From contig JAPLTG010000035.1 in assembly GCA_026398255.1 (NCBI GenBank), positions 1-64,000 on the forward strand: a stretch of DNA of 64,000 nucleotides. The letters are read 5' to 3'. The DNA is from Verrucomicrobiota bacterium (GTDB taxonomy: Bacteria; Verrucomicrobiota; Verrucomicrobiia; Chthoniobacterales; Terrimicrobiaceae). The notes under the pieces are model-generated. The model was not told where the DNA came from. It saw nothing but the letters and a program-made list of their open reading frames with translations, and did no database searches. Both the position numbers and the translations under genes were made by a program. Numbering within the stretch: the first letter of the stretch is position 1; every line of letters starts with the position of its first letter. Below are positions 1-12,292 of the stretch, piece after piece.

Positions 1-126
1 AAACTTCGCGGAGTCCGGAAGGAAAAATTCCTCATTCACCTCAAAGAATCGGAGTGGCGTTTCAATCATCGAAGTGTTAACATCTACTCAATATTGCTAA
101 CGCAAACTCGCTATTTTCCCCTCTAA
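1..126 (+). mobile_element. 3' end of IS1595-family transposase gene (partial)
   Basis: The first reading frame is open from the window edge to a TAA at 124-126 and gives the last 41 residues of a protein. It contains K-E-K-F, then H-L-K-E, then the W-R-F-N-H-R cluster followed by a hydrophobic I-Y-S-I-L-L segment. From family knowledge this order is the C-terminal signature of IS1595-type (DDE) transposases. The rest of the element lies outside the window. The sequence just after the stop (about 127-143) could hold the right terminal inverted repeat, but the left end cannot be seen to test this. It abuts the start of the AAA ATPase gene. Confidence 0.7.
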
Positions 127-158
127 ACTGGACAAGACCCTATGTAATTCGTCAGTCT

Positions 159-1412
159 GTGGAGCGTAAACTTCCGCAATCGGTTGCGCGGGAGATCAAG
201 TTGCCTATGGGAACGGGCAAGGTAGTGGGTTTGGCGGGTGTGCGTCGTGCTGGAAAGACTTTCCTTTTCTTCCATGCGATGCAGTTGCTGCTGGAAATGG
301 GAGTTCCACATGAGCGGATGCTTTATCTGAATTTCGAGGATGACCGCCTTCAACCCATACGCGAAGGGGATTTGGATTTGGTATTGAGGAGTTACCGGGA
401 ATTATATCCGGATTCTATTGGCAAAAAGGTTTATTTGTTTCTTGATGAAGTTCAAAGTGCGCCGGGTTGGGAGCTGTGGGCGCGGAGGTTGCATGACACT
501 GAGAATGTCGAGATTTTTGTAACAGGTTCTTCGTCTCAACTTTTGGCCCGCGATCTTTCGACGGCCTTGCGCGGGCGGAGCATTACACTTGAGGTGTTTC
601 CGCTTTCCTTCAGAGAGTTTTTGAATTTCCGCTCGATTCCTGTGGTGGAGGCTGACGCAAACAATGAAAGCCGCTTGCGTGCGGCTTTGGTGGAATATCT
701 GGAATGGGGAGGGTTTCCGGAACTTGTTCTAGCGGATGAGGCTTTGCGTCCATTAATTTTGGAGGAATACACCTCGCTCATGTTGTATCGGGATATCCTG
801 GAGCGCTACGGGGTGCGCAACGAGAAGTTGATGAGGGAACTTCTGCGACATGCATTTCGAAACACGGCGACGCTTTTGAATGTGAGTAAATTGCATCGCG
901 ATCTGGCATCGCAAGGGTATCAAGTCTCAAAAAATACCCTTTTTGAATATCTTGGGTATTTGGAAGATGCTTTCCTTATTTTTCTGCTTCCGATCCAAGA
1001 ATTGTCGATCAGAAAACAAGCGCACAATCCCAAAAAATTGCATGTCATTGATACGGGATTGATCTCGGCTTTCAAGACTCACCCCGGTCGAGATTTGGGT
1101 CACCGTTTGGAAACGGCTGTATTTTTGCATCGGCGCCGGCGGTGCAAAGGCTTGTTTTATTGTGCGGATTCGCTGGAAATCGACCTATGCGATGCGGAGG
1201 GACAGGAGTTTTTCAACACTTGCTGGGATCTAGGAAACCCGGAAACGCTGGATCGTGAGTTGCGAGCGATGGCGTTTGGGGCGAAGTGTTGGCCGTCCGC
1301 AAAAGGTCAACTTGTTTACCATGAATACCAGCAACAGTCTCTGGAAGGCGTTTCGAATTGCTTGCCAGCATGGAAGATGTTGATTGGCGATGGAAATGGC
1401 AACATTCAATGA
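159..1412 (+). CDS. AAA family ATPase with DUF4143 domain, probably N-terminally shortened
   Basis: The 417 residues have a Walker A motif G-V-R-R-A-G-K-T at about 27-34, a Walker B Y-L-F-L-D-E-V at about 92-98, and a C-terminal DUF4143-like part with L-E-I-D (the E-x-D of a nuclease-like fold) near 345. Such orphan ATPases are widespread in bacteria and of unknown role. The only available start is the GTG at 159; the frame stays open further upstream into the transposase end without an ATG. Family members usually carry some extra residues before this point. I infer that the IS insertion removed the original start. The stop overlaps the next gene start (ATGA at 1409-1412), so it is translationally linked to the glycosyltransferase operon. 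Confidence 0.8.
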   Translation: MERKLPQSVAREIKLPMGTGKVVGLAGVRRAGKTFLFFHAMQLLLEMGVPHERMLYLNFEDDRLQPIREGDLDLVLRSYRELYPDSIGKKVYLFLDEVQSAPGWELWARRLHDTENVEIFVTGSSSQLLARDLSTALRGRSITLEVFPLSFREFLNFRSIPVVEADANNESRLRAALVEYLEWGGFPELVLADEALRPLILEEYTSLMLYRDILERYGVRNEKLMRELLRHAFRNTATLLNVSKLHRDLASQGYQVSKNTLFEYLGYLEDAFLIFLLPIQELSIRKQAHNPKKLHVIDTGLISAFKTHPGRDLGHRLETAVFLHRRRRCKGLFYCADSLEIDLCDAEGQEFFNTCWDLGNPETLDRELRAMAFGAKCWPSAKGQLVYHEYQQQSLEGVSNCLPAWKMLIGDGNGNIQ

Positions 1413-2506
1413 AGGTGGCCTTCGTTTACAGCGGCGGGCGGGAGCGGCGCGGATCGGCTGGACCATCCGACTTTTTTTACGGTGCGAGGGAATTGGGGGC
1501 TCTGGAGGGCTATGAGGTGGAGTTTATGGATTTGGATCATGCCCCGGCGGATTGGGTTACTGCGCTGGTTGGCAGGATTTTTGCAAAGTGTCTACCGCCA
1601 AGGACCAGCGCGGATTGGATCGCTCGCTGTCGGCGGGTGTTGCCGAGGCTGAGGGGCGCCGATGTGGTGGTCGCGACGGCCACGGAAATTTCATTTGGGC
1701 TCGCATTTTGGAAGTCGCTGGGCATGATGCAGAAGCCGCTCGTAGGGATTCTCTGCGGAGCGGTGAATTACCCGATCGCATCGGAAATTCGGCGAAAATT
1801 CGTCGCGAGTCATTTCAAGCAGTTTCAGCCTGTGCTTTTTGCCGATTCCGAATTGCCAGAGATCGAGCGGCGGTTCGGTGTGCCAAGCAGATTGTCTTCG
1901 GTGTGTTGGTTTGGGGTGGATGACAGTTTTTGGACTCTGCCGGAGGAAGGCGTGCGGCGCGAAGGTGTGCTGGCTGTTGGCAATGACAGTCGACGGGATT
2001 TTTTGACTCTTGTGGAGGCGGCGAAGTTTTTGCCTGAAATAAGCTTCACAGTCATAACCCGAAGGGAAAAGTCTCGGATTCTTCCCCCGAATGTGGAATG
2101 GCGGCGAGGGGATTGGAAAGAGGCGCCTGTCACAGATGATGAGTTGCGGGCGCTCTATCAGCAGGCGTCCTGCGTCGTTGTTCCTCTGGAAGAATGCATT
2201 CAACCTTCCGGTCAAAGCGTCGCGATGCAAGCGATGATGTGCGGGGCTCCAGTCGTTCACACAAAAACGGCTGGTTGGTGGGGCGCTGGCGTGATTCGGG
2301 ATCGGATCGAGGTGGAATTGGTTGCGCCTGGATACGGCGATGCCATGGCTCGCGCCATAAAAAAATCTCTTCAAAGTGATAAAAAAAACCGTGCCCGGGA
2401 GAGTTTGTTGGCTCATGCTTGGACGGCGTCGGGTTTTGCCCAAAGAATATCAAAGGTGATCGAAAGCGCCGCTTCCGAGAAGTTGAACCGTGTGGCTGGA
2501 AAATGA
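1409..2506 (+). CDS. Glycosyltransferase, GT-B fold (GT4-like)
   Basis: The protein has 365 residues, starting at the ATG that overlaps the stop of the ATPase gene by 4 nt; this start gives the expected M-K-V-A-F-V-Y first beta strand. A C-terminal segment P-S-G-Q-S-V-A-M-Q-A-M-M-C-G-A-P-V-V matches the conserved sugar-nucleotide-binding region of GT4-like enzymes, although the usual E-x7-E pair is not clear. It probably transfers a sugar to a growing surface glycan at the inner face of the membrane. The donor and acceptor cannot be read from sequence. First of a run of overlapping genes. No membrane segment seen. Confidence 0.75.
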   Translation: MKVAFVYSGGRERRGSAGPSDFFYGARELGALEGYEVEFMDLDHAPADWVTALVGRIFAKCLPPRTSADWIARCRRVLPRLRGADVVVATATEISFGLAFWKSLGMMQKPLVGILCGAVNYPIASEIRRKFVASHFKQFQPVLFADSELPEIERRFGVPSRLSSVCWFGVDDSFWTLPEEGVRREGVLAVGNDSRRDFLTLVEAAKFLPEISFTVITRREKSRILPPNVEWRRGDWKEAPVTDDELRALYQQASCVVVPLEECIQPSGQSVAMQAMMCGAPVVHTKTAGWWGAGVIRDRIEVELVAPGYGDAMARAIKKSLQSDKKNRARESLLAHAWTASGFAQRISKVIESAASEKLNRVAGK

Positions 2507-3261
2507 ACAATCAAGAAAAAACAACCGCTCTCGTTATCCCGCATTTTAATGACACGGAGCGTCTTGAGGTATTTCTGCCAAAGCTCGCCAAGATTCTTCC
2601 CGAGTATTTCGAGATCATTGTCTCGGATGATGGATCAAGCTCAGATGAGCGGAGGAAGCTCAGTCATTTGATCCATGAGGTGCAAAGGGCAGTGGGTTCG
2701 GGTGGAGTGCAGTTGAGAGATGCCCTCTTCCATGAGCGGAATACTGGGAAGGGCGGGGCTGTCCTGAGGGGGTGGCTGGCTTCGAGTCAAACCCGAAACC
2801 TTGGTTTTGTGGATGCCGACGGAGCTGTTGGCGTCGAGGAGATTGTGCGCGGCACGAATTTCTTTCATTCCATGGAGGGGGCGCAATGGGACGCGCTTTT
2901 CGCCAACAGGGTCAAAATGCTCGGACGAAATGTGCAACGCTCGCTGAAACGCCATTTTTCAGGCCGGATTTTTGCCACGATCGTTTCAAATCTCGGAAAA
3001 ACATCGGCTTATGATACGCAATGTGGTTTCAAGCTCTTGCGGCGTGAAGCTTTTACTCGGATCGCGCCTTATATGAAGACGCCAGGCTTTGCGTTTGATG
3101 TTGAATTATGCCTGCTACTTCAAAAATTTGGTTTTCACACGATCGAGTTTCCGGTTGATTGGAGTGACATCCCTGGAAGCAAAGTGCGATTGGTGCGTGA
3201 TGGCTTGAGAATGGCCTTGGAAGTGATTCGGATTCGCCGAAGGGTGGATGCCATTAAGTAA
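2503..3261 (+). CDS. Glycosyltransferase family 2 (dolichyl-phosphate-mannose-synthase-like)
   Basis: The 252-residue product begins with T-A-L-V-I-P-H-F-N-D and has D-D-G-S-S near 45 and F-V-D-A-D-G (the DxD metal and nucleotide-sugar site) near 105. C-G-F-K-L-L-R-R near 180 is typical of the DPM1/polyprenyl-phosphate branch of GT2. The enzyme may charge a lipid carrier or extend a glycan. The start overlaps the previous stop by ATGA. No C-terminal membrane helices are present, so it is a soluble or peripheral form. Confidence 0.85.
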   Translation: MNNQEKTTALVIPHFNDTERLEVFLPKLAKILPEYFEIIVSDDGSSSDERRKLSHLIHEVQRAVGSGGVQLRDALFHERNTGKGGAVLRGWLASSQTRNLGFVDADGAVGVEEIVRGTNFFHSMEGAQWDALFANRVKMLGRNVQRSLKRHFSGRIFATIVSNLGKTSAYDTQCGFKLLRREAFTRIAPYMKTPGFAFDVELCLLLQKFGFHTIEFPVDWSDIPGSKVRLVRDGLRMALEVIRIRRRVDAIK

Positions 3262-4246
3262 CAAAATGTTTGGATTTAATAATATTAGAAAGCCGATTGT
3301 CGCAGTCAGCATGGCGCCGACTCGTTCGCCATGGGGCGGAGCGAGCCCATTTGTGTGGCAACTCCAAGAAATGATGCACCGCCGGGGCTGGCGTGTTCAG
3401 TATTCGTTGAACCCAACGCCAGATTTGGTGTTTGTGATCGATCCCCGGATGGACCACCCGAAGAAAAAATTCGGACTAGAGGAATTGAGGAGCTTTCGCA
3501 AGGCAAACCCGACGACACCAATCTTGCATCGCATCAATGAATGTGACCAGCGCAAGGCAACGAATGATATTGATGAGTTGTTGAGACAAACCAGCGAACT
3601 GGCGGACTACACGGTTTTTATTGCCGAGTGGTTGCGGGATTATTTTGCCGCGAAGTGGTTCGATTTATCGCGTCCTCATTCTTGCATTTACAATGGAGCT
3701 GACGCCGGAATTTATCATCCTTTTGGTTCGAGGCTTCCCGAAAGAGGCGAACCGGTGCGGATCGTGACCCACCATTGGTCTGACAATCCCTTAAAGGGTT
3801 TTGATATCTATGAATCAGTCGATCACATGATTGCGGATGGCAAATTGCCCGGGTTTGTTCTACGCGTCATTGGGCGCTGGCCGAAGACGATCCAATGGCG
3901 CTCGGCGGAACTTTTTGGTCCCATGACAGGGCGTCCACTCGCCGACAAACTGCGCGAGTGCCATCTATATCTGACCGCTTCGCGCTGGGAGCCTTGTGGG
4001 ATGCACCATGTGGAAGGCGCGCAATGTGGCTTGCCGCTGGTTTATCACGAAGATGGTGGTGGTATCGTCGAGGCCGGGAGGAAATACGGTCTTGGATACC
4101 ATGAAGACCCTTTGGAGACCATAAAAGAAGTGGCCCAAAGATTGCCGGAGTTTCGACATAAAGTTTTGCAAAACATGCCTTCCGGTGATCGGATGGCTAT
4201 GGATTACGCTGATGTGTGTCGCATGCTGGTGGGGTTCGGAAATTGA
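3248..4246 (+). CDS. Glycosyltransferase, GT4-like
   Basis: The 332-residue protein reads through P-T-R-S-P-W-G-G (an early glycine-rich loop), N-G-A-D near 150, and a C-terminal W-E-P-C-G-M-H-H-V-E-G-A-Q-C-G-L-P, which matches the conserved acceptor/nucleotide region of GT4 enzymes, with the E-G and C-G-L-P landmarks in place. Two starts are possible: ATG 3248, overlapping the upstream gene and preceded by AAGGG only 3 nt away, and ATG 3266. I keep 3248 because of the overlap pattern of the operon. Sugar specificity unknown. Confidence 0.75.
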   Translation: MPLSNKMFGFNNIRKPIVAVSMAPTRSPWGGASPFVWQLQEMMHRRGWRVQYSLNPTPDLVFVIDPRMDHPKKKFGLEELRSFRKANPTTPILHRINECDQRKATNDIDELLRQTSELADYTVFIAEWLRDYFAAKWFDLSRPHSCIYNGADAGIYHPFGSRLPERGEPVRIVTHHWSDNPLKGFDIYESVDHMIADGKLPGFVLRVIGRWPKTIQWRSAELFGPMTGRPLADKLRECHLYLTASRWEPCGMHHVEGAQCGLPLVYHEDGGGIVEAGRKYGLGYHEDPLETIKEVAQRLPEFRHKVLQNMPSGDRMAMDYADVCRMLVGFGN

Positions 4247-5142
4247 ATAAACCTCCACCCATTCTCATTTCAACGGCGCCGCGCTACATGGGGTTGGCCC
4301 TCTGGACAGTTGGGCAAATGGCCAGATTTTGGAGCGGTCATCCGCAGGTTTTCATATCCGGTGCGGAGGCTGATTCTCGATGTCTCCCTTTGCGGGACGA
4401 CCCGGCGAATTGGATGCGCGTCACCGCCAGTGCCTGTGAGGAGCTTTTACAACGCGGTTATGACATGGCGTTTGTTATTTTGGACGACCACGCGCCGATT
4501 GCCGAATGCAATGGGGAATTTTTAACCAATAGCATGTCCCGCATGATGCGCGAGAAGGATGCGACTCTCTGCCTTGCCGTGGGGCCCGGGCCTGTTTTGA
4601 AGCGCAAGGGTTTTTTTGAGGAATGTGGAAGCTACAGATTCGAAAAGTTGAGTGTTGATGAGCCTTGGAAATTAGCCCTTCACCCTGCTTTGTGGAACCT
4701 CAAGAAACTGCATGAAATCTTGCTCCATCTGATGGAAAAACTGCCTGTTGCGCAACAAAATCCTTGGGCTTTTGAGCGAATCGGGAGTTCCGCCGCAGAA
4801 GGTGGTTTGAGCAGGGATTTGCTGGCATCATGTTGGAGAGTCGATGGCTGGCAGTCGGCTACAAAGGAAGCTAAGAGATTGCATGATTTGAGAGATTTAT
4901 ACACCCGAACTATCTTGCGTTCAGCCACTATGGCATTAATGCCGATCGGTCTGAGTGCAGAAAAATTCAAAAACCGAATTGCAGGACTCTGGCATCCACG
5001 CCTTGGAGCCTATCCCTGCTTTTGGAGTGGTATCATGAAGAAGGGTGCGCTCAATGGTGACTACCTCTTTTATGCCTCAATCAAAAACCGCCCGGAACTT
5101 GTTAACGGGATCGAGGCGCTCTTCCCGGCGCAACGCGCATGA
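4243..5142 (+). CDS. Hypothetical protein of glycan operon (unrecognised)
   Basis: I do not recognise this 299-residue protein. The start is taken as TTG 4243, because it overlaps the previous stop as TTGA in the manner of its neighbours and has a G-rich sequence upstream. An in-frame GTG at 4216 is the alternative. The N-terminal part I-L-I-S-T-A-P-R-Y and a later V-I-L-D-D-H-A-P could be the first strand and the acidic site of a GT-A-like nucleotide-diphospho-sugar fold, but no full glycosyltransferase motif is visible. No signal peptide or membrane helices are seen. Its position between two glycosyltransferases implies a role in the same glycan pathway. Confidence 0.7.
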   Translation: MNKPPPILISTAPRYMGLALWTVGQMARFWSGHPQVFISGAEADSRCLPLRDDPANWMRVTASACEELLQRGYDMAFVILDDHAPIAECNGEFLTNSMSRMMREKDATLCLAVGPGPVLKRKGFFEECGSYRFEKLSVDEPWKLALHPALWNLKKLHEILLHLMEKLPVAQQNPWAFERIGSSAAEGGLSRDLLASCWRVDGWQSATKEAKRLHDLRDLYTRTILRSATMALMPIGLSAEKFKNRIAGLWHPRLGAYPCFWSGIMKKGALNGDYLFYASIKNRPELVNGIEALFPAQRA

Positions 5143-5945
5143 AGATCGTGGGCATCCTTTTGGTGCGTAACGAGGAGGGCTTCGTCGAAGCTGCAGTGCG
5201 GAATGTGCTGGGTTTCTGTGACGAGTTTATTGCGGTGGATAACGGGTCAACTGATGAAACCATTCCGATACTCGAAAAACTCCGCGAACAAAATCCGCAG
5301 AAACTCAGGGTTCATCATGCTTCTCATCCGCGTGAGAGCCACGAATTGGTTGCGGGCTTGGCCGGGACTAATACTTGGGTGTTTGGGGTGGATGGCGACG
5401 AGATTTATGATCCCGTCGGGCTTGCCCGTTTTCGCAAAAGACTCGAATCCGGAGAATTTGAACATGATTGGTGTATCTTCGGAAATGTGCTGAATGTGCG
5501 TCGCCTCGATCTCGCTCGCGGAATCGCGGAAGGTCACCTTGCGCCACCTTGCCGTAGCATGACAAAGCTCTACAACTTTGCCGTGATCGAGGCTTGGCAT
5601 GGGCCCTGCCTGGAACGCCTGCACGGCGGGCGCGTTGTTTTCAAGAATGGCTTCCATGAAAAGTTGCGGCGGAACTTGCACGAGTCTGTTTCGTGGGATG
5701 AGGCGGATCTCCGCTGCATGCATCTTTGTTTCATACCGCGATCTTCCAAGGAGTCACCCGTCTCGGGTCCCCGCAAAAACATCATGGATATCCACAACCG
5801 CAGCATCACCAAAACGATTCTGCAGTTCCGCGACAGACTTCTCGGTAGGCCTGTGGTGGATTGGAAGGAGCAACGCTATGGCCGGGGCGATAGGGTTGAA
5901 AAATTGACTGCTCCTTTTTTCTCAAGGGAGCTCCACTCGCATTGA
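5139..5945 (+). CDS. Glycosyltransferase family 2
   Basis: The 268-residue protein starts K-I-V-G-I-L-L-V-R-N-E-E, followed by F-I-A-V-D-N-G-S-T-D-E-T (UDP-sugar binding) and G-V-D-G-D-E-I-Y (DxD-type metal site) near 85. These are hallmarks of GT-A fold family 2 enzymes of the SPS/TagA-like group that act on lipooligosaccharide or surface glycans. ATGA overlap with the upstream gene fixes the start. The middle part, with R-S-M-T-K-L-Y and H-E-K, resembles that subgroup. Acceptor unknown. Confidence 0.85.
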   Translation: MKIVGILLVRNEEGFVEAAVRNVLGFCDEFIAVDNGSTDETIPILEKLREQNPQKLRVHHASHPRESHELVAGLAGTNTWVFGVDGDEIYDPVGLARFRKRLESGEFEHDWCIFGNVLNVRRLDLARGIAEGHLAPPCRSMTKLYNFAVIEAWHGPCLERLHGGRVVFKNGFHEKLRRNLHESVSWDEADLRCMHLCFIPRSSKESPVSGPRKNIMDIHNRSITKTILQFRDRLLGRPVVDWKEQRYGRGDRVEKLTAPFFSRELHSH

Positions 5946-7039
5946 AAAGAGTCGGATTCATTATCAATAGCCGCATTCCGGAGTGGCATGCAATGAGGCG
6001 CGGCATGCGACCGCACCATATGCTGACTGGTTGGCCAGACAAGGGGTCGCCAATGCATTTCATGCGCTTTGCCTGGATCGCGAATCATGTGAACCAAGGC
6101 GCCGAGATCGGATATGAACTTTTCAAACCTTGGCGCAAATACGATGCGGTGGTTTTTTTGAAGTCCATGGAAATGGGGTGCGACCGCCTCTTGGAAAGCC
6201 TCAAGGCCTCGCGGGTCGTGTTCGAAGCCAATGTGGATTACTACACGCTTCGTGGGAATGAATCTCTCCCGCAGGAAATTTTGCCTTCGGAGGCCCAGCG
6301 GCAGGCGGCGATTCGCATGACCACAAGCGCCGACAAGATTATCGCCTCCTCGCGGCATTTGGCTGGGATTTGCTCAGCCTGGAATTCCCGCACGAGTTGG
6401 GTTCCCGACAACATACCCGACCGTTGGATCGGAGGCAAGGTATCGCAAAGGCCCGTTCGCGGCGGGCGTCTTCAAGTTTGGTGGAGCGGAATGGCATCCA
6501 AGTTGGGAGATTTGTTGGAGATTGAAAAACCGCTGCGCATTTTTTCTGACAAGATTCATTTGCACCTCGTCACCGGGGATTTGCCATCCGCGCTGGATCG
6601 GCTTCCAGAAGGCCAAGGAACCCGGTTGCGACGACTGCTGACTGATTTGCAGGTAACCATTCACCGTTTTCGGGATGTTCCCTCCCTGCTGGCCCTTTAC
6701 AGCAGCGGAGGGGTGATCATATCCCCGCGTCAACTCGCCAATCCCTACAATCAATCCCACACCGAGTGGAAGATCACCTTGGGGATGGCTGCGGGGCTTC
6801 CCGCCATAGCCAGTCCCCAGCCGAGTTATTTGGATGTGGCAGAGATTGCCGACCATCCGAAAGCAGTGACGATTTGTGCCTCCGATGCCGATTGGTGCGA
6901 TGCCTTCGCAGAGGCGATGGGTGATGTCGATTTTGAGGACCGGAGTCGCGCATCACTCGATGTGGTGCAGCGGCATTACGCCTCATCGGTGGTTGCAAAA
7001 ATGCACTCGCGCGAGATGCTGGAGCTTCTGTCAGAATGA
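5942..7039 (+). CDS. Glycosyltransferase, GT-B fold
   Basis: The 365-residue protein begins at a TTG (5942-5944) whose last two bases overlap the upstream TGA, giving K-R-V-G-F-I-I-N-S as the first strand. A Rossmann-like half ends near N-I-P-D-R-W, and the C-terminal half has H-T-E-W-K-I-T-L-G-M-A-A-G-L-P-A-I-A-S, matching the donor-binding E and G-L-P positions of GT4-like enzymes. There is no better ATG nearby at the N-terminus. It overlaps the next gene by ATGA. Confidence 0.75.
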   Translation: MKRVGFIINSRIPEWHAMRRGMRPHHMLTGWPDKGSPMHFMRFAWIANHVNQGAEIGYELFKPWRKYDAVVFLKSMEMGCDRLLESLKASRVVFEANVDYYTLRGNESLPQEILPSEAQRQAAIRMTTSADKIIASSRHLAGICSAWNSRTSWVPDNIPDRWIGGKVSQRPVRGGRLQVWWSGMASKLGDLLEIEKPLRIFSDKIHLHLVTGDLPSALDRLPEGQGTRLRRLLTDLQVTIHRFRDVPSLLALYSSGGVIISPRQLANPYNQSHTEWKITLGMAAGLPAIASPQPSYLDVAEIADHPKAVTICASDADWCDAFAEAMGDVDFEDRSRASLDVVQRHYASSVVAKMHSREMLELLSE

Positions 7040-8160
7040 CCAAGCGGATTGTTTTCGCAAAATACGGATCTTTTTCTCTGGTGAATTCCAGAGTGGAGGA
7101 GATCTTGCGACGGCAATTTCCCTCCTACCATCTGCAGGTGGTCGATGTGGCACAGGATGTCTTGACGCATTACCGGATCGAGTCGCTTTGGTTGAGATTG
7201 TATTCCAGCCTGAGCGAGTTGCCCGCATTCGTCAGGGGACGGCATAGTCCTTGGGATTTTGTTTTTCGCCATTTGCGGGCATGGGAGTTGATTCAGCGCT
7301 GGATTCGCCAAAACATTCCGCCATCCGAAACGGCTTTTGTTTTTCAAACCCAAGGAATGTTCGACGCCTCGCATCCAGAAGTTCCGTTTTTCATTTACAC
7401 CGACCATACGCGCGCCGCTCATAAGCGACAGCCCAGAGGAGGCACGCCTGCGAGAGTGGGAAATGGTTGGGAAGCCGCCGAACAGAATCTCTACCGGAAA
7501 GCGGCAACGATTTTTACTTTGAGCAAATTCTGCGAGGAATCTTTGGTGGAGGACTACGCCATACCGCGAGCAAAGGCCCTCACGGTTTCTACTGGTATCA
7601 ATATCGATATGCCTTCAGCCATGTCTGATCGTTCGAAAGCAGCTCCGGTGATTTTATTTGTGGGTGTGGAGTGGGAAACAAAAGGCGGGCCAGAGTTGTG
7701 GAGTGCATTTGCAAAAGTCAGGCTGCGGCGTCCAGATGCCGAACTCTGGATTGTGGGCGCGCGTCCCGACTTGAGAGGCGAGGGGGTTCGGCTTTTTGGT
7801 CGTGTGAATAGCGAGCAAATGGCGCAAATTTTTCAAGAGGCGAGACTACTTTGCGTGCCAAGCCGGATCGAGCGGGCAAGCATGGTGGCGCTGGATGCCG
7901 CAGCGCACGGGTTGCCTGTGATTTCAACCCCGCATGGTGCCGGTGCCGAGCGAGTTCAGGGCGAGGTGACAGGTCTTTTGATCGATCCCTGCAACACGGA
8001 TGCATTTGCTGAGGGAATTTTGCGGCTTCTGGATCATCCTGACCTCGCAGCAGAGATGGGCAAGGCGGGGCGAAGAATGGTGGAGGAGTCCTTCACTTGG
8101 GAAGCTGTCGGCAAAAAAATCGGAGATCGCATTCGCTTGTCGATTAAGCCTGTTTCATGA
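7036..8160 (+). CDS. Glycosyltransferase family 4
   Basis: The 374 residues include F-V-G-V-E-W-E-T-K-G-G near 200 (the start of the C-terminal Rossmann domain) and E-R-A-S-M-V-A-L-D-A-A-A-H-G-L-P-V-I (donor site) near 275. H-G-A-G-A-E-R-V-Q-G-E and a final W-E-A-V-G follow; this is the standard GT4 architecture of retaining glycosyltransferases. The usual E-x7-E is changed to E-x8-D in this reading. Start and stop both overlap neighbours by 4 nt. Confidence 0.85.
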   Translation: MTKRIVFAKYGSFSLVNSRVEEILRRQFPSYHLQVVDVAQDVLTHYRIESLWLRLYSSLSELPAFVRGRHSPWDFVFRHLRAWELIQRWIRQNIPPSETAFVFQTQGMFDASHPEVPFFIYTDHTRAAHKRQPRGGTPARVGNGWEAAEQNLYRKAATIFTLSKFCEESLVEDYAIPRAKALTVSTGINIDMPSAMSDRSKAAPVILFVGVEWETKGGPELWSAFAKVRLRRPDAELWIVGARPDLRGEGVRLFGRVNSEQMAQIFQEARLLCVPSRIERASMVALDAAAHGLPVISTPHGAGAERVQGEVTGLLIDPCNTDAFAEGILRLLDHPDLAAEMGKAGRRMVEESFTWEAVGKKIGDRIRLSIKPVS

Positions 8161-8963
8161 GCCATACGGATATCCAGCGCGAATTCTCAAAAATCTGGCG
8201 TCTCGCCACGGCACCGCTACGCCGTCTGCCGGATTTTTTGATTCCAGGTTCGCCGAAGTGCGGCACCTCCTCGCTTTTTGATTTGATCATGCTCCATCCC
8301 GAGGCCCGGCGTGGTTTGCGCAAGGAGCCCACGAATTTCATTCACTATCCCACGAGCGTGCTCCGTTCGCGGATGAATCAGCCCTTGGCCCTCGGCCGTT
8401 TTCTTTGTGGTGACGGGAGTGTGGAGTATTTCTTTCATCCGGATGCCCCCGCAAATGCCGCCGCCATTGTGCCGAATGCCAAACTCCTTTTCCTGTTTCG
8501 CGATCCCGTGGAGCGGGCTTGGTCGGAATACCGCATGTTTGTTAAGTCCGGCCATGAGCGGGCGGATTTTACCGCCTCCATCCAAAAAGCGGTGCAGTGG
8601 CTCTCCAATCCGGATTTGCAGCCTCTGGTGGAATCCGCCTCAAGAAATTCCTTCAATCCCGTGCGCTATGTTCGTTGCGGGATGTATGCGCAGCTTCTCG
8701 CGGTTTGGGAGAAGTCGTTTTCAAAAAACAACACGCTTGTTCTTTTTGCAGAAGATTTTTTTTCCAGCCCCTCGGAGACTGCTAAGCAGGTTTATTCCTT
8801 TCTTGGATTGAGACCTCATGTTTCCGATTCGTGGCCGCATGCGCGGGATGGTGATTCCAAGGAGCAACCGCCGCGAGAAGCCATGCAGATTTTGCGCGAA
8901 TTCTATCGTCCGCACAACGAGCACCTGAGACGGATGCTTGGAAAACCCCTGCCATGGCATTGA
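8157..8963 (+). CDS. PAPS-dependent sulfotransferase
   Basis: The 268 residues contain I-P-G-S-P-K-C-G-T-S-S-L near 29-40, the 5'-phosphosulfate-binding loop, and F-R-D-P-V-E-R-A-W-S-E-Y near 118-129, the 3'-phosphate-binding motif. Both are hallmarks of heparan-sulfate-type sulfotransferases. From family knowledge it transfers sulfate from PAPS to a hydroxyl or amino group of a glycan. It lies inside a row of glycosyltransferase genes with ATGA coupling, so I infer that the surface glycan is sulfated. No PAPS synthesis genes (cysDNC) are in the window. No membrane anchor is seen. Confidence 0.88.
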   Translation: MSHTDIQREFSKIWRLATAPLRRLPDFLIPGSPKCGTSSLFDLIMLHPEARRGLRKEPTNFIHYPTSVLRSRMNQPLALGRFLCGDGSVEYFFHPDAPANAAAIVPNAKLLFLFRDPVERAWSEYRMFVKSGHERADFTASIQKAVQWLSNPDLQPLVESASRNSFNPVRYVRCGMYAQLLAVWEKSFSKNNTLVLFAEDFFSSPSETAKQVYSFLGLRPHVSDSWPHARDGDSKEQPPREAMQILREFYRPHNEHLRRMLGKPLPWH

Positions 8964-10099
8964 TTCCAAGGCCGGAGCGCACCTCGCCACTCAGCGAGTG
9001 CTTTTACTTGGCCCTCGATCTCGCCAGTCGGGTCAAAAATCTTCCTGCCCGCATCGAAGCGACAAGGCGTTGCGAGTCGATTCAGCGTAGTCGGAATGCC
9101 AGCCCGGTATTGAATTACGGTCTATCCGCCCCACGTTCCGGGATGCGCTTGCCGATCGGAGGCGAAGTCAAATTGATCCCCCTCAAACAGCGCTTTCCCG
9201 AGCAGTTTCAGGATTTCAATCTTGTGTATTTGGTGAGCAGTGCCTTGCCGCCTCATGCGGAAATCCTCGTGGCCAAGGCAAAGCGGATGGGAATCCCGCT
9301 CGTATGGAATCAAAACGGAGTCGGCTATCCCGCGTGGTGTGGTGACTTTTATCCTTGGTTCAACCGCCGCATGGCGCGAATCCGAGAGCAGGCGGATTTC
9401 ATTTTCGATCAAAGCGAATTCTCCAGCCTCAGTGCAGAGCGTTATCTTGGAAAGGTAGCCACTCCTTCCGAGGTTCTCTTTAATCCCGTGGATTTGGACA
9501 TCTTCAGCCCCGCGCCAGATCCGCTCGATCACGGAGTCTGGCGCATCCTTGCCGCCGGAACCAGTCATGCCCTGTATCGCACGAAATCCGTGATCGATAC
9601 TTTCAAGGTTCTTCTCGCGCGGGGACGCAAGGCGCGGCTTATGATCGCCGGCGAGTTCCGTTGGCCTGGTGCGGAAGTGGATGTTCGCCGGGAGTTGGAT
9701 GGCATCGCCGAACATGTCGAGATTTTGCCGCCGTTCACTCAAAGCGAGGCGCCGAGTATCTACCGCCAAGCCCATGTCCTCCTGCATACGAAATACAATG
9801 ACCCATGTCCTACTGTTCCTATCGAGGCGATGGCATGCGGGTTGCCCGTTGTCGGAACGCACAGTGCCGGCATGCCGGAGCTTGTTTCCAAAGGGTGCGG
9901 AGTCCTTGCCCCCGTTCCCTCCAGCTGGACGAGGGATATCGCCGGCGATCCCGTGCAATTGGCGGATGCGGTGGAAGCCGTGATGTCACGCCACCCGGAG
10001 ATGTCTGCTGCCGCGCGCGCCCACGCCGTGGCAACATTCGATGTGAAAAATTGGCTGAACAGGCACGAGCAGGTTTTCATAAACTTGATGCGCCACTGA
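8954..10099 (+). CDS. Glycosyltransferase family 4
   Basis: The 381-residue protein overlaps the sulfotransferase gene by 10 nt. It has N-P-V-D-L-D-I-F-S-P (linker to the C-terminal domain) near 180, then N-D-P-C-P-T-V-P-I-E-A-M-A-C-G-L-P-V-V-G (donor-binding region with the conserved E) near 290. S-A-G-M-P-E-L-V follows. This is typical GT4. The N-terminus is longer and more polar than in neighbours. Confidence 0.88.
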   Translation: MALIPRPERTSPLSECFYLALDLASRVKNLPARIEATRRCESIQRSRNASPVLNYGLSAPRSGMRLPIGGEVKLIPLKQRFPEQFQDFNLVYLVSSALPPHAEILVAKAKRMGIPLVWNQNGVGYPAWCGDFYPWFNRRMARIREQADFIFDQSEFSSLSAERYLGKVATPSEVLFNPVDLDIFSPAPDPLDHGVWRILAAGTSHALYRTKSVIDTFKVLLARGRKARLMIAGEFRWPGAEVDVRRELDGIAEHVEILPPFTQSEAPSIYRQAHVLLHTKYNDPCPTVPIEAMACGLPVVGTHSAGMPELVSKGCGVLAPVPSSWTRDIAGDPVQLADAVEAVMSRHPEMSAAARAHAVATFDVKNWLNRHEQVFINLMRH

Positions 10100-10106
10100 C
10101 ACATTC

Positions 10107-11105
10107 ATGCCAAATCCATTCTTCAGCGTCCTGCTCCCGGCGTTTAACGCGAAGGCTCATGTTGGTGCCGCCATTCGAGACATCCTGGCGCAGACTTTCC
10201 GCGATTTTGAGTTGCTGGTGGTGGATGATGGATCCACGGACGGCACTTCGGAATGCGTAGAGACATTCTCCGACCCACGGCTTCGCCTCATACGCCTTCC
10301 TGCCAATCAGGGCCTTGTGGCCGCCTTGAATGCCGGCCTGCAGGAAGCACGAGGAAAATGGATCGCCCGCCAAGACGCCGACGACCGCTCTCGAAGAGAC
10401 CGCTTGGCAAAGCAGGCCCGTCTTCTTTCGGAAAATCCCGACGCGGTGCTTGTTTACTCGCAAGCCCGTCTGATCGATGGTCACGGGCTGTGGCGTGGAA
10501 GGCTGCGGCCACCTCTCGAAGATGCAGGCCTGCGCTGGGATTTCTGCTTCAGAAACCCCATTCCGCATACCTCAGCCGTTTTCCCCCTCCATCTTGTCCG
10601 CGAAGACCTCGGGGGATATCGAAACTGCAAAGCCTGCGAGGACTACGACCTCTGGTCGCGCCTTCTGCGCCATGGGAAAGCCGTTGGATCAGCAGAAACG
10701 CTCGTCTCCTATCGCAATCATGCATCATCCATCATGGGTCAGGAGCATGCCGTGCAAGCCGAGCGCGAGAATCCCGCATTGCGCGAAATCATGTCAAAAA
10801 ACCTTCAGGATTGGCTGGATGCCTCCAAAGAAGAAGTCGATCTCGTTGCATCGGCTTGGCTCGATCCCAAACATGCGCGCTGGGAAGATTATTTTACAGC
10901 AACGAATCGGCTGGCCTGCGGACCGCTTCGGCCACATCCAGCTTTGCTTGCAGAGCAGGATTTCACACTCCTGAACCGCGTGGCTGCAGTCTCCGCCGCT
11001 ATCGCCCTTGAAATGCTTTCCGCATTGAAAAAAACATCCCCGGACCGGTATGCATCCCTTCCCCAGCCGAGGACTTTTATTACCCGACTTCTCAAGCGCA
11101 TCTGA
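10107..11105 (+). CDS. Glycosyltransferase family 2
   Basis: The 332-residue GT-A enzyme opens F-F-S-V-L-L-P-A-F-N-A, then V-V-D-D-G-S-T-D-G-T near 37-46 and A-R-Q-D-A-D-D near 88-94 (metal-binding DxD). C-E-D-Y-D-L-W-S-R near 185 supplies the catalytic-base region. These motifs match the chondroitin-synthase or WcaA-like branch of GT2. It begins 7 nt after the previous stop and is the last gene before a terminator, so it closes the operon. Confidence 0.9.
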   Translation: MPNPFFSVLLPAFNAKAHVGAAIRDILAQTFRDFELLVVDDGSTDGTSECVETFSDPRLRLIRLPANQGLVAALNAGLQEARGKWIARQDADDRSRRDRLAKQARLLSENPDAVLVYSQARLIDGHGLWRGRLRPPLEDAGLRWDFCFRNPIPHTSAVFPLHLVREDLGGYRNCKACEDYDLWSRLLRHGKAVGSAETLVSYRNHASSIMGQEHAVQAERENPALREIMSKNLQDWLDASKEEVDLVASAWLDPKHARWEDYFTATNRLACGPLRPHPALLAEQDFTLLNRVAAVSAAIALEMLSALKKTSPDRYASLPQPRTFITRLLKRI

Positions 11106-11129
11106 TTCCTCTCATCGCTCTTTTTGAAT

Positions 11130-11161
11130 GGCACCGTGGCTACCAGCCCGGTGCCTTTTTT
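11130..11161 (+). terminator. Rho-independent terminator of glycan operon
   Basis: A perfect 7-bp stem (GGCACCG at 11130-11136, CGGTGCC at 11149-11155) is followed directly by six T residues. It lies 24 nt after the stop of the last overlapping glycosyltransferase gene. Confidence 0.88.
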
Positions 11162-11203
11162 GTTTTCAGATTTTGCTGCACGGAACAAATTATCCGCATC
11201 TGC

Positions 11204-12292
11204 ATGAAACTTCTCTTTCTGTCCAGCTATGCGCATTTGGTTCTGGAGCGCAGCACATCCCGGGTTTCAGGCGGGGCAGAGTTGCAGGTGGCTTTGCTTG
11301 CGCGTGAATTGGCGCGGCGGGGAGTTGAGGTTGTAATCGTTGGCGGCGATACCGGGCAGCAGGATGGTGTCGTCATTGAGGGGGTGAAAATTCGCTCTGG
11401 GGGGCAATTCCATAGCGGCAACCCGGTCGCCATGTTGGCTTCAATACCCAAGGTATTTTCTGTGATTCGGGAGGAGCGGCCGGACTGGGTGTTTCTATTG
11501 GGGTGGACGGCTTGGATGGCTATCATTGTGGCAATGCGTGGGGCGCTTGGGTATCGCGCGGGATTTATTTGCGGCTTGGATAGTGAGCTAACGGGGGATT
11601 TCCGTCGGGAGAATCCGGTGCGGGGCGGATTGTTCGAATGGGGCGTGGCGAAGTGTGATTTGCGGTATGCCATGACGGAGCGTCAGGGGGAGCTTTTCGC
11701 GAAGCGTGGCTGGAGCTGCGCGATGTATCGGAATTTGATTTTGCCCAGAGCGTTTCCAAATCAAGGGATGAAAGAGGTGGATTTTTTGTGGGTCTCGCGA
11801 TGCCAACCGGTGAAGCGTCCGCATTTGTTCCTCGATCTGGTGGAGAAGCTGCCTGAGCACTCATTCGAGATGATCTGTCCAAGGGAGGATGTGGGTTTAT
11901 GGGAAAGCGTGGCGACGCGGGCGGCAGTGATGCGGAATCTCCGGTTCATCGAGAAGGTGCCCTACCACGAAATTCAGAGTCACTACGATGCAGCGCGGGT
12001 TTTTGTGAATACCTCGGAGTGGGAGGGATGGCCGAATAGCTTCATCCAGGCAGGGCTGGGCAGGACGGCGTTGCTTTCGCTTGTGGTGAATCCGGATGGG
12101 ATTTTCGAGCGGTTCGGGTTGGGGTGTCTTGCTTCGGGGAATTTTGAGAGTCTCAAATCAGATGCGCAGGCGATGATATCTGATGCGGCGGCGCTGGAAC
12201 GGATGCAGGCGGGGTGTGCGCGGTTTGTGGCCGAGATGCATGACAACGCCAAGGAGACGGAGGCGTTTCTGGCGGGGTTGCGGGATTTTTAA
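11204..12292 (+). CDS. Glycosyltransferase family 4
   Basis: The 362-residue protein begins K-L-L-F-L-S-S-Y-A-H and has S-G-G-A-E-L-Q-V near 22-29, the loop that binds the acceptor in GT4 enzymes. F-L-W-V-S-R-C-Q-P-V-K-R-P follows near 193, and N-T-S-E-W-E-G-W-P-N-S-F-I-Q-A near 265 gives the donor-site E-G and Q/E positions. It lies behind the terminator of the glycan operon and so probably has its own promoter, though none is clear. Its stop codon overlaps that of tsaD on the other strand in a shared TTAA. Confidence 0.85.
   Translation: MKLLFLSSYAHLVLERSTSRVSGGAELQVALLARELARRGVEVVIVGGDTGQQDGVVIEGVKIRSGGQFHSGNPVAMLASIPKVFSVIREERPDWVFLLGWTAWMAIIVAMRGALGYRAGFICGLDSELTGDFRRENPVRGGLFEWGVAKCDLRYAMTERQGELFAKRGWSCAMYRNLILPRAFPNQGMKEVDFLWVSRCQPVKRPHLFLDLVEKLPEHSFEMICPREDVGLWESVATRAAVMRNLRFIEKVPYHEIQSHYDAARVFVNTSEWEGWPNSFIQAGLGRTALLSLVVNPDGIFERFGLGCLASGNFESLKSDAQAMISDAAALERMQAGCARFVAEMHDNAKETEAFLAGLRDF

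What the first reader, a model, noticed from the sequence alone, without database searches (positions are those of the whole stretch)
1409..10099. Nine consecutive glycan genes with stop-start overlaps, including a sulfotransferase
ATGA or TTGA overlaps (or a 10-14 nt overlap) join almost every gene from 1409 to 10099, and an AAA ATPase is coupled in front. Seven glycosyltransferases plus one PAPS-dependent sulfotransferase with no flippase, polymerase or exporter nearby suggest a dedicated assembly line for a sulfated surface or protein glycan. This is the strongest candidate for an undescribed pathway in the window.
Basis: partly seen in the sequence, partly recalled or inferred. Interest (0 to 1): 0.55.

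Follow-up and report, generated by a model that had tools for sequence, protein, structure and literature searches.

The report
Operon building a sulfated surface glycan
A tightly packed run of ten sugar-joining enzymes and one sulfate-adding enzyme, kept in the same order in several related bacteria, most likely builds a sulfated sugar chain for the cell surface; it is a new example of a known kind of gene cluster.

Summary
All nine junctions from the AAA gene to 10099 overlap (7 of 34 elsewhere in the window). The unit continues to 12292: ten glycosyltransferases (GTs; the 'unknown' gene has a predicted GT-A fold) plus one PAPS-type sulfotransferase. The sulfotransferase clade occurs in 9 of 213 genomes of the order (Chthoniobacterales by record titles), and all nine loci keep the core F-G-H-sulfotransferase-J. 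One relative carries an APS kinase two genes downstream. In 4 of 4 carriers of one related family a Wzm-type ABC permease lies 9-25 kb upstream on the same strand; 2 of them show a Wzt-type ATPase. 'No exporter nearby' is thus an artefact: the window begins at a contig end collapsed on an IS1595-type element, and own Wzm/Wzt genes sit on another contig. The AAA gene matches a candidate phage-defence family (PDC-S01) and is not conserved with the operon. Best reading: the assembly half of an ABC-exported, O-antigen-like sulfated glycan locus, working like the sulfated capsule locus of Vibrio KMM 8419; a new member of a known kind. Between two species of one genus the middle GTs have diverged far more than the flanks, as in surface-antigen switching.

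The parts
1..140 (+). 3' end of an IS1595-type element (ends with its inverted repeat); the contig stops here
   Evidence: PF12762 on the complete copy in L005
159..1412 (+). A: AAA_14/DUF4143 ATPase, candidate single-gene defence family PDC-S01; neighbour rather than part of the pathway
1409..2506 (+). B: GT4 glycosyltransferase
   Evidence: ortholog in the same position in G012 and in all four family-f9 carriers
2503..3261 (+). C: GT2 glycosyltransferase (best read as polyprenyl-phosphate type; inference); found only in the two carriers of the genus
3248..4246 (+). D: GT4 glycosyltransferase, the best conserved between families (65-82%)
   Evidence: Pfam score just under the cut-off
4243..5142 (+). 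E: no Pfam/NCBIfam match; predicted GT-A-fold nucleotide-sugar transferase; D82-H83-x-P85 invariant in 6 orthologs
5139..5945 (+). F: GT2 glycosyltransferase
5942..7039 (+). G: divergent GT4 (PF13692 below its cut-off)
7036..8160 (+). H: GT4 glycosyltransferase
8157..8963 (+). I: PAPS-type sulfotransferase (PF00685, also PF13469), only PF00685 match in the genome; PAPS-site and K56-E57 residues invariant in 8 orthologs
8954..10099 (+). J: GT4 glycosyltransferase
10107..11105 (+). K: GT2 glycosyltransferase, conserved end of the operon
11204..12292 (+). L: GT4 glycosyltransferase, last gene of the conserved block; tsaD (by reading) follows on the other strand

Best explanation
Genes B to L (1409-12292) are the glycosyltransferase/sulfotransferase half of a surface-glycan locus. 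The GTs add sugars one after another at the cytoplasmic face, probably onto a lipid carrier (inferred). Sulfotransferase I moves sulfate from PAPS to one of those sugars; the PAPS-site fit is shown, the acceptor sugar is inferred. PAPS comes from the cysC/cysD/cysN genes of the same genome (shown to be present). The finished chain leaves through a Wzm/Wzt-type ABC exporter: shown in the same cluster in relatives, inferred here to be the pair on contig C32 or one lost or moved at the IS junction. It is then displayed as an O-antigen-like or similar surface glycan (inferred; no KpsC/S-type capsule linkage gene was found in this genome). The AAA gene in front is a separate candidate defence gene.
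For: Conserved order B-D-E-F-G-H-I-J-K-L in three carriers of family f9 (G033, G051, G094; G043 read across two fetched stretches), D-to-L in G211, shorter versions in G047, G055 and G012; clade in 9 of 213 order genomes, at least 358 bits against 93 for the next. The sulfotransferase profile hits 3rnl (1.2e-27) and solved heparan sulfate 3-O- and N-sulfotransferases (1.5e-23 and 1.7e-18), with the Glu of 'KEP' aligned to a Glu of 3-OST. APS kinase two genes downstream of L in G211, its only copy; cysC/D/N on own C25. Wzm-type permease upstream of B on the same strand in 4 of 4 f9 carriers, Wzt in 2 of 4, and a second PF00685 gene next to Wzm in G051. Own Wzm/Wzt on C32. KpsC/S family in 1 of 9 carriers. 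Wzy_C (O-antigen ligase/polymerase) in 7 of 9. GT-A fold of E.
Against: No exporter was seen in the fetched flanks of G047, G055, G211 or G012 (some contigs or stretches are short), nor a Wzt in those of G043 and G094. The Wzm proteins of G051 and G094 do not pass Pfam on their own and the Wzt of G051 shows no Wzt_C domain at E up to 0.001; the two Wzm rest on 77% and 72% identity to that of G043. APS kinase is near universal in the family (22 of 26), so its mere presence proves nothing. Own exporter and operon are on different contigs, and the joining through the IS is not proven: the four relevant flanks share no target duplication. Wzy_C was not found in G047 or G055. Foldseek TM-scores for E are low (0.30-0.41 over the query in the top ten) and four of its five models are of low confidence. 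No sugar, sulfate or acceptor has been measured.
Confidence: 0.72

Rival explanations
1. The operon makes a sulfated oligosaccharide for protein glycosylation (S-layer or pilin-like proteins), moved across the membrane by a flippase and put on protein by an oligosaccharyltransferase.
For: A defined set of ten GTs with no polymerase in the operon fits an oligosaccharide of fixed length; KpsC/S in 1 of 9 carriers.
Against: In all four f9 carriers the same cluster has an ABC-2 permease, the usual partner of O-antigen/capsule export. No oligosaccharyltransferase was noticed among the translated flanking genes, but none was searched for by family.
Confidence: 0.13
2. It is a capsule or released exopolysaccharide rather than an O-antigen (same assembly and export, different anchor; overlaps with the best explanation).
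For: Sulfated capsules use this kind of locus (Vibrio KMM 8419, PMC11641403); extra NKWYS 'capsular polysaccharide' proteins occur in G043 and G051.
Against: KpsC/S family in 1 of 9 carriers, so the group 2 capsule route is unlikely; a Wzt_C-like C-terminal domain (below cut-off) in the Wzt of G033 and of the own genome fits O-antigen export, though the Wzt of G051 lacks one at E up to 0.001.
Confidence: 0.25
3. The sulfotransferase is inactive or modifies something unrelated, and the glycan is unsulfated.
For: No biochemical evidence for any member.
Against: P33-K34-C35, S38, R115, S123 and the K56-E57 pair are invariant in 8 sequences down to 46% identity with the window's; the gene stays embedded between H and J in all nine loci; cysC lies close by in G211.
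Confidence: 0.08
4. The AAA_14/DUF4143 ATPase is a working part (regulator or assembly factor) of the pathway, as the ATGA coupling suggested.
For: ATGA overlap; a DUF4143 ATPase also sits in front of B in G012, another (by reading) lies some 3 kb behind the APS kinase in G211, and 3 of 10 own loci examined have a GT directly downstream.
Against: The G012 ATPase is a different gene with no DNA homology to A; similarity starts at base 1405, the start of B. No ortholog of A at the other loci. Both match PADLOC's candidate defence family PDC-S01. None of 27 loci from other genomes of the genus has a GT2/GT4 neighbour by my rough profiles.
Confidence: 0.05

Closest known systems
Sulfated capsule locus of Vibrio sp. 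KMM 8419 (PMC11641403; passages read)
   Same: GTs, sulfotransferases, PAPS genes (cysNDC) and an ABC exporter in one polysaccharide region; differs between strains
   Different: Has kps export genes including kpsS and a solved sulfated product with glucose and rhamnose; here KpsC/S was found in 1 of 9 carriers and no product is known. Sequence relation not tested.
Putative sulfated glycosaminoglycan cluster of Pontiella sulfatireligans F21 (PMC7356697; passages read)
   Same: Same phylum in the broad sense; one sulfotransferase among eight GT2/GT4 genes; sulfated polymer detected by dye. Its sulfotransferases are listed under PF13469, a family the window's gene also passes
   Different: Marine Kiritimatiellae; gene order as given in the figure legend differs; no sequence was compared here
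xss (synechan) locus of Synechocystis PCC 6803 (PMC8205485; passages read)
   Same: Eight GTs plus two sulfotransferases making a sulfated exopolysaccharide
   Different: Wzx/Wzy polymerisation and plasmid-borne; here the linked exporter in relatives is ABC type
ABC-transporter-dependent (Wzm/Wzt) O-antigen loci, e.g. Aeromonas salmonicida wbsalmo (PMC4483657; search listing only)
   Same: GT genes with an ABC-2 exporter (in relatives)
   Different: A sulfotransferase in the operon; own exporter not linked in the assembly
Animal heparan sulfate 3-O- and N-sulfotransferases
   Same: Profile match over most of the domain, PAPS-binding loops and a Glu that aligns with the catalytic base (role recalled)
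   Different: Bacterial acceptor unknown; clearly diverged

Membership tests
PAPS-dependent carbohydrate sulfotransferase (PF00685 type) | Sulfotransfer_1 domain above curated cut-off | tested here: met
   47.6 bits against 22
PAPS-dependent carbohydrate sulfotransferase (PF00685 type) | 5'-phosphosulfate loop, 3'-phosphate site and catalytic Glu conserved | tested here: met
   Invariant P33 K34 C35 S38, K56 E57, R115, S123 in 8 sequences; aligned with 3-OST; roles of the residues recalled
PAPS-dependent carbohydrate sulfotransferase (PF00685 type) | Transfers sulfate from PAPS to a sugar | not testable with these tools
   Needs enzyme assay
Sulfated polysaccharide locus (hallmark of PMC11641403: PAPS genes plus sulfotransferase in the cluster) | Sulfotransferase within a GT cluster | tested here: met
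Sulfated polysaccharide locus (hallmark of PMC11641403: PAPS genes plus sulfotransferase in the cluster) | PAPS synthesis genes in the same cluster | tested here: inconclusive
   APS kinase at the locus in G211, on other contigs in the other eight carriers; in the own genome cysC/D/N are on contig C25, linkage through the IS inferred only
ABC-transporter-dependent O-antigen/glycan locus | Wzm-type permease with Wzt-type ATPase in the cluster | tested here: inconclusive
   Permease in 4 of 4 f9 carriers, ATPase in 2 of 4; not linked in the own assembly (contig end); not seen in the fetched stretches of the other four relatives
ABC-transporter-dependent O-antigen/glycan locus | Product ligated to lipid A-core | not testable with these tools
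   Wzy_C/ligase family present in own genome but not specific
Group 2 (Kps) capsule | KpsC/KpsS Kdo-linker transferases (PF05159) | tested here: not met
   No match in own genome; 1 of 9 carriers
Wzx/Wzy-dependent locus | Flippase and polymerase in the cluster | tested here: inconclusive
   None among the operon genes or noticed by reading in the fetched flanks; Wzx was not searched for by family, Wzy_C occurs elsewhere in the genome
PDC-S01 candidate defence ATPase (gene A) | PADLOC model match over nearly the full length | tested here: met
   1.8e-92, residues 9-408 of 417; defence activity untested

The most novel reading that the evidence does not exclude
A sulfated O-antigen-like glycan conserved in sparse lineages of Chthoniobacterales. 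The sulfotransferase and the outer GT blocks (B-D and I-J) stay nearly constant within a genus, while the inner GT cassette (E-H) is swapped for distant orthologs. The bacterium would thus change the middle of its surface sugar, perhaps under phage pressure, while keeping its sulfate; candidate defence genes (PDC-S01, SoFic-like) sit at the same boundary.
Probability: 0.3. Interest if true: 0.55.

Novelty: new member of a known kind. Interest (0 to 1): 0.35.

Why it matters
Sulfated bacterial polysaccharides are described from cyanobacteria and some marine bacteria (papers). A conserved sulfotransferase/GT operon in Chthoniobacterales MAGs, at least one of them from a pond by its record title, would extend the trait to a largely uncultured group (recalled). 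It would also supply bacterial relatives of the heparan sulfate sulfotransferases, and it points to swapping of inner sugars in a surface glycan. It matters less as a mechanism, since each step has a known precedent.

Tried and rejected
Rejected: AAA ATPase as pathway partner. Rejected: 'no exporter'. Rejected as evidence: presence of APS kinase, since 22 of 26 genomes of the family have it, 20 of them without this sulfotransferase clade. Weak lead dropped: DUF4143 genes placed before GT genes. 3 of 10 own loci examined, but 0 of 27 from other genomes of the genus by two home-made GT profiles. That count is rough: 30 loci came with the 96 match rows, 2 of them own and already counted, one (L141) dropped for lack of a central gene; my ORF picker took an antisense frame in at least one own locus (L103); the downstream gene of L114 reads by eye as a WecG-like transferase; and the G012 ATPase in front of B was not among the 30.

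Tried without result: target-duplication pairing of the IS ends. It pairs C42 with C10 and C33 with C26, but leaves C25/C19 and C28/C32 unpaired, so the true neighbour of the window's first base stays open; my choice of C25 rests on gene direction only. Sequence search of E against solved structures: no match up to E 1. The sulfotransferase in phage records: no match. Paper searches: Spartobacteria with sulfotransferase, 0 papers; Chthoniobacter with polysaccharide terms gave only unrelated papers among the 12 listed of 584; a search for DUF4143 was swamped; search 85 (freshwater Verrucomicrobia) was seen as a listing only. No paper on this operon was listed by searches (20 of 27 listed; 0; 15 of 22; 12 of 584; 8 of 11; 5 of 5) of the open-licence library.

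The genome-contig scan needs exact short peptide patterns, so its 7 loci are a lower bound. The first look missed the Wzm of G043, which one search finds, so its rows are not complete. L033 and L034 gave no row; L033 was searched again, L034 not used further.
Full report
Observation. The nine genes are there. From the AAA gene (159-1412) to gene J (8954-10099), 9 of 9 junctions overlap (4 nt, except 14 nt for C-D and 10 nt for I-J). Elsewhere in the window 7 of 34 same-strand neighbours overlap by 1-20 nt. Two more GTs follow: K (10107-11105) and L (11204-12292), both by Pfam; then tsaD (by reading) on the other strand ends the unit. Eight of the nine reported genes are likely GTs. Gene E, which has no Pfam or NCBIfam match, gives an AlphaFold model (best mean pLDDT 75.9, the other four 49-67; 6 sequences) whose best structural matches are GT-A transferases: B4GALNT1 at Z 13.2 over 176 residues, rmsd 3.5, and GnT-I at Z 12.7 over 189 residues, rmsd 4.2. 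Foldseek's best E-value is 3.5e-4, with low TM-scores. Matches at Z 10-11 also include nucleotidyltransferases, which share the fold, so transferase activity is inferred from context.

Where the window lies. Window base 1 is base 1 of contig C28 of a 2.60 Mb, 44-contig genome. The first 140 bases are the 3' end of a repeated IS1595-type element (PF12762 on its complete copy). Four 5'-side ends (C25, C19, C42, C33) and four 3'-side ends (C28, C32, C10, C26) of this IS lie at contig ends. Target duplications pair C42-C10 and C33-C26 only. Of the remaining four ends, three lie in glycan genes: C28 itself; C19, which starts a GT cluster; and C32, which carries Wzm, Wzt, a nucleotidyltransferase/dehydratase pair, a GT2 and a PF03567 sulfotransferase-like gene. 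C25 ends in a truncated glutamine-amidotransferase (asparagine-synthase-like) gene. Gene direction favours C25-IS-C28 and C32-IS-C19, but this is inference.

Conservation. The sulfotransferase profile (A1) finds 41 of 213 order genomes at E up to 1e-20, but with a clear gap: nine genomes at 358 bits or more, the rest at 93 or less. The nine are G000 and G012 (own genus), G033, G043, G051, G094 (family f9), G211 (f13), G047 and G055 (f7). Gene order: B-D-E-F-G-H-I-J-K-L in G033, G051 and G094, and across two stretches in G043; D to L in G211 (contig begins at D); E to L in G047; F to J plus L in G055; B-C-D-F-G-H-I-J in G012, whose contig ends after J. So F-G-H-I-J is kept in 9 of 9. C is found only in the genus. 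Overlaps are largely conserved too. No phage record matched the sulfotransferase.

Sulfation. Gene I is the only PF00685 match in the genome. Its profile hits 3rnl, heparan sulfate 3-O-sulfotransferases and N-sulfotransferases among solved structures (1.2e-27, 1.5e-23, 1.7e-18). PAPS-site residues and K56-E57 are invariant in eight sequences (roles recalled). In G211 an APS kinase, its only one, lies two genes after L. In the own genome cysC with CysD- and CysN-like genes is on C25 (CysD and CysN by my reading of a PF01507 and a GTPase protein). Control: APS kinase occurs in 22 of 26 genomes of the family, 20 of them without this sulfotransferase clade, so only the co-location in G211 is informative. 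In G051 a second PF00685 gene (7.8e-26) lies directly after Wzm; G094 has the same by reading.

Export. A Wzm-type permease lies upstream of B on the same contig and strand in 4 of 4 f9 carriers, at about 25, 9, 21 and 20 kb in G033, G043, G051 and G094. Those of G033 and G043 pass Pfam; those of G051 and G094 do not on their own but are 77% and 72% identical to that of G043. A Wzt-type ATPase is present in G033 and G051 (the latter without a Wzt_C match); none was found in the fetched stretches of G043 and G094. G033 also has a NeuB gene in the cluster. Fetched flanks of G012, G047, G055 and G211 show no exporter; the G012 and G055 contigs are only 12.4 and 9.1 kb long. KpsC/S is found in 1 of 9 carriers. 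ABC-2 permeases of some sort occur in 9 of 9, and Wzy_C proteins in 7 of 9.

Mosaic. Against the sister species G012, DNA identity is 86% over 1405-4206 and 93% over 8156-10174. Between these blocks only short patches align: two of 231-295 columns at 69-71%, and two of 33 and 54 columns at 91 and 81%. At protein level: B 90, C 94, D 82, E absent at this place (a 23% E-like gene lies upstream), F 56, G 49, H 34, I 95, J 92%. D of G211, another family, is as close to the window's D (82%) as that of G012. This is what exchange of an inner cassette between related surface-glycan loci looks like; recombination was not formally tested.

The AAA gene. Homology with G012 begins at 1405, the start of B. 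In front of it each genome has a different AAA_14/DUF4143 ATPase. Both match PADLOC family PDC-S01 (window 1.8e-92), and in G012 a Fic gene matching SoFic precedes it. DUF4143 matches occur 2 to 14 times in 16 of 16 genomes of the genus. No ortholog of A was found at the other loci, though G211 has a similar-looking ATPase downstream. I therefore take it as a neighbouring candidate defence gene.

Literature. Passages read: PMC11641403 (Vibrio KMM 8419 sulfated capsule; ABC transporter, cysNDC, sulfotransferases), PMC7356697 (Pontiella sulfatireligans, sulfotransferase among eight GT2/GT4 genes, sulfated polymer detected) and PMC8205485 (synechan, eight GTs and two sulfotransferases, Wzx/Wzy). 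These make the present operon a new member of a known kind. Searches did not list a paper on this operon; several of those lists were cut.

Verdict. A real, conserved GT/sulfotransferase operon, most likely the assembly half of an ABC-exported, O-antigen-like sulfated glycan. Shown: gene content, order, conservation, sulfotransferase motif fit, PAPS genes, exporter linkage in one family. Inferred: lipid-linked assembly, acceptor sugar, own exporter, attachment.

Noticed in passing
window 159-1412; L024:3316-4527: Two AAA_14/DUF4143 ATPases without DNA homology (both PDC-S01 matches) abut the start codon of gene B in two species of one genus; similarity of the two loci starts at window base 1405.
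   Followed up: partly
window 1-140; L075 end; L076 start; L111 end: IS1595-type element at several contig ends; two pairs of flanks share target duplications, the four flanks around C28, C32, C19 and C25 do not, which suggests IS-mediated rearrangement or deletion there.
   Followed up: partly
L111 (own contig C32:10001-27601): A second own glycan locus with Wzm, Wzt and a PF03567 sulfotransferase-like gene (L111:14824-15627).
   Followed up: partly
L143:230-946; L144:12651-13370: A further sulfotransferase directly behind the Wzm gene in G051 (Pfam PF00685) and G094 (by reading).
   Followed up: partly
L028:5068-6162; L084:6243-7157: NKWYS 'capsular polysaccharide synthesis' proteins in the clusters of G043 and G051, function unclear.
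   Followed up: no
window 4243-5142 and orthologs (A2, A3): Gene E belongs to a GT-A-like family with no Pfam or NCBIfam match; D-H-x-P and LHP-x-LW motifs, the second kept even in the distant G012 copy.
   Followed up: partly
L076:1083-4297 (own contig C19): A DUF4143 ATPase gene lies between a partial GT2 5' piece and a full GT2 of similar start, as if the GT2 had been copied or interrupted.
   Followed up: no
L082:5489-6517 (G033): NeuB-family nonulosonate synthase inside the G033 cluster, hinting at an acidic nine-carbon sugar in that version of the glycan.
   Followed up: no
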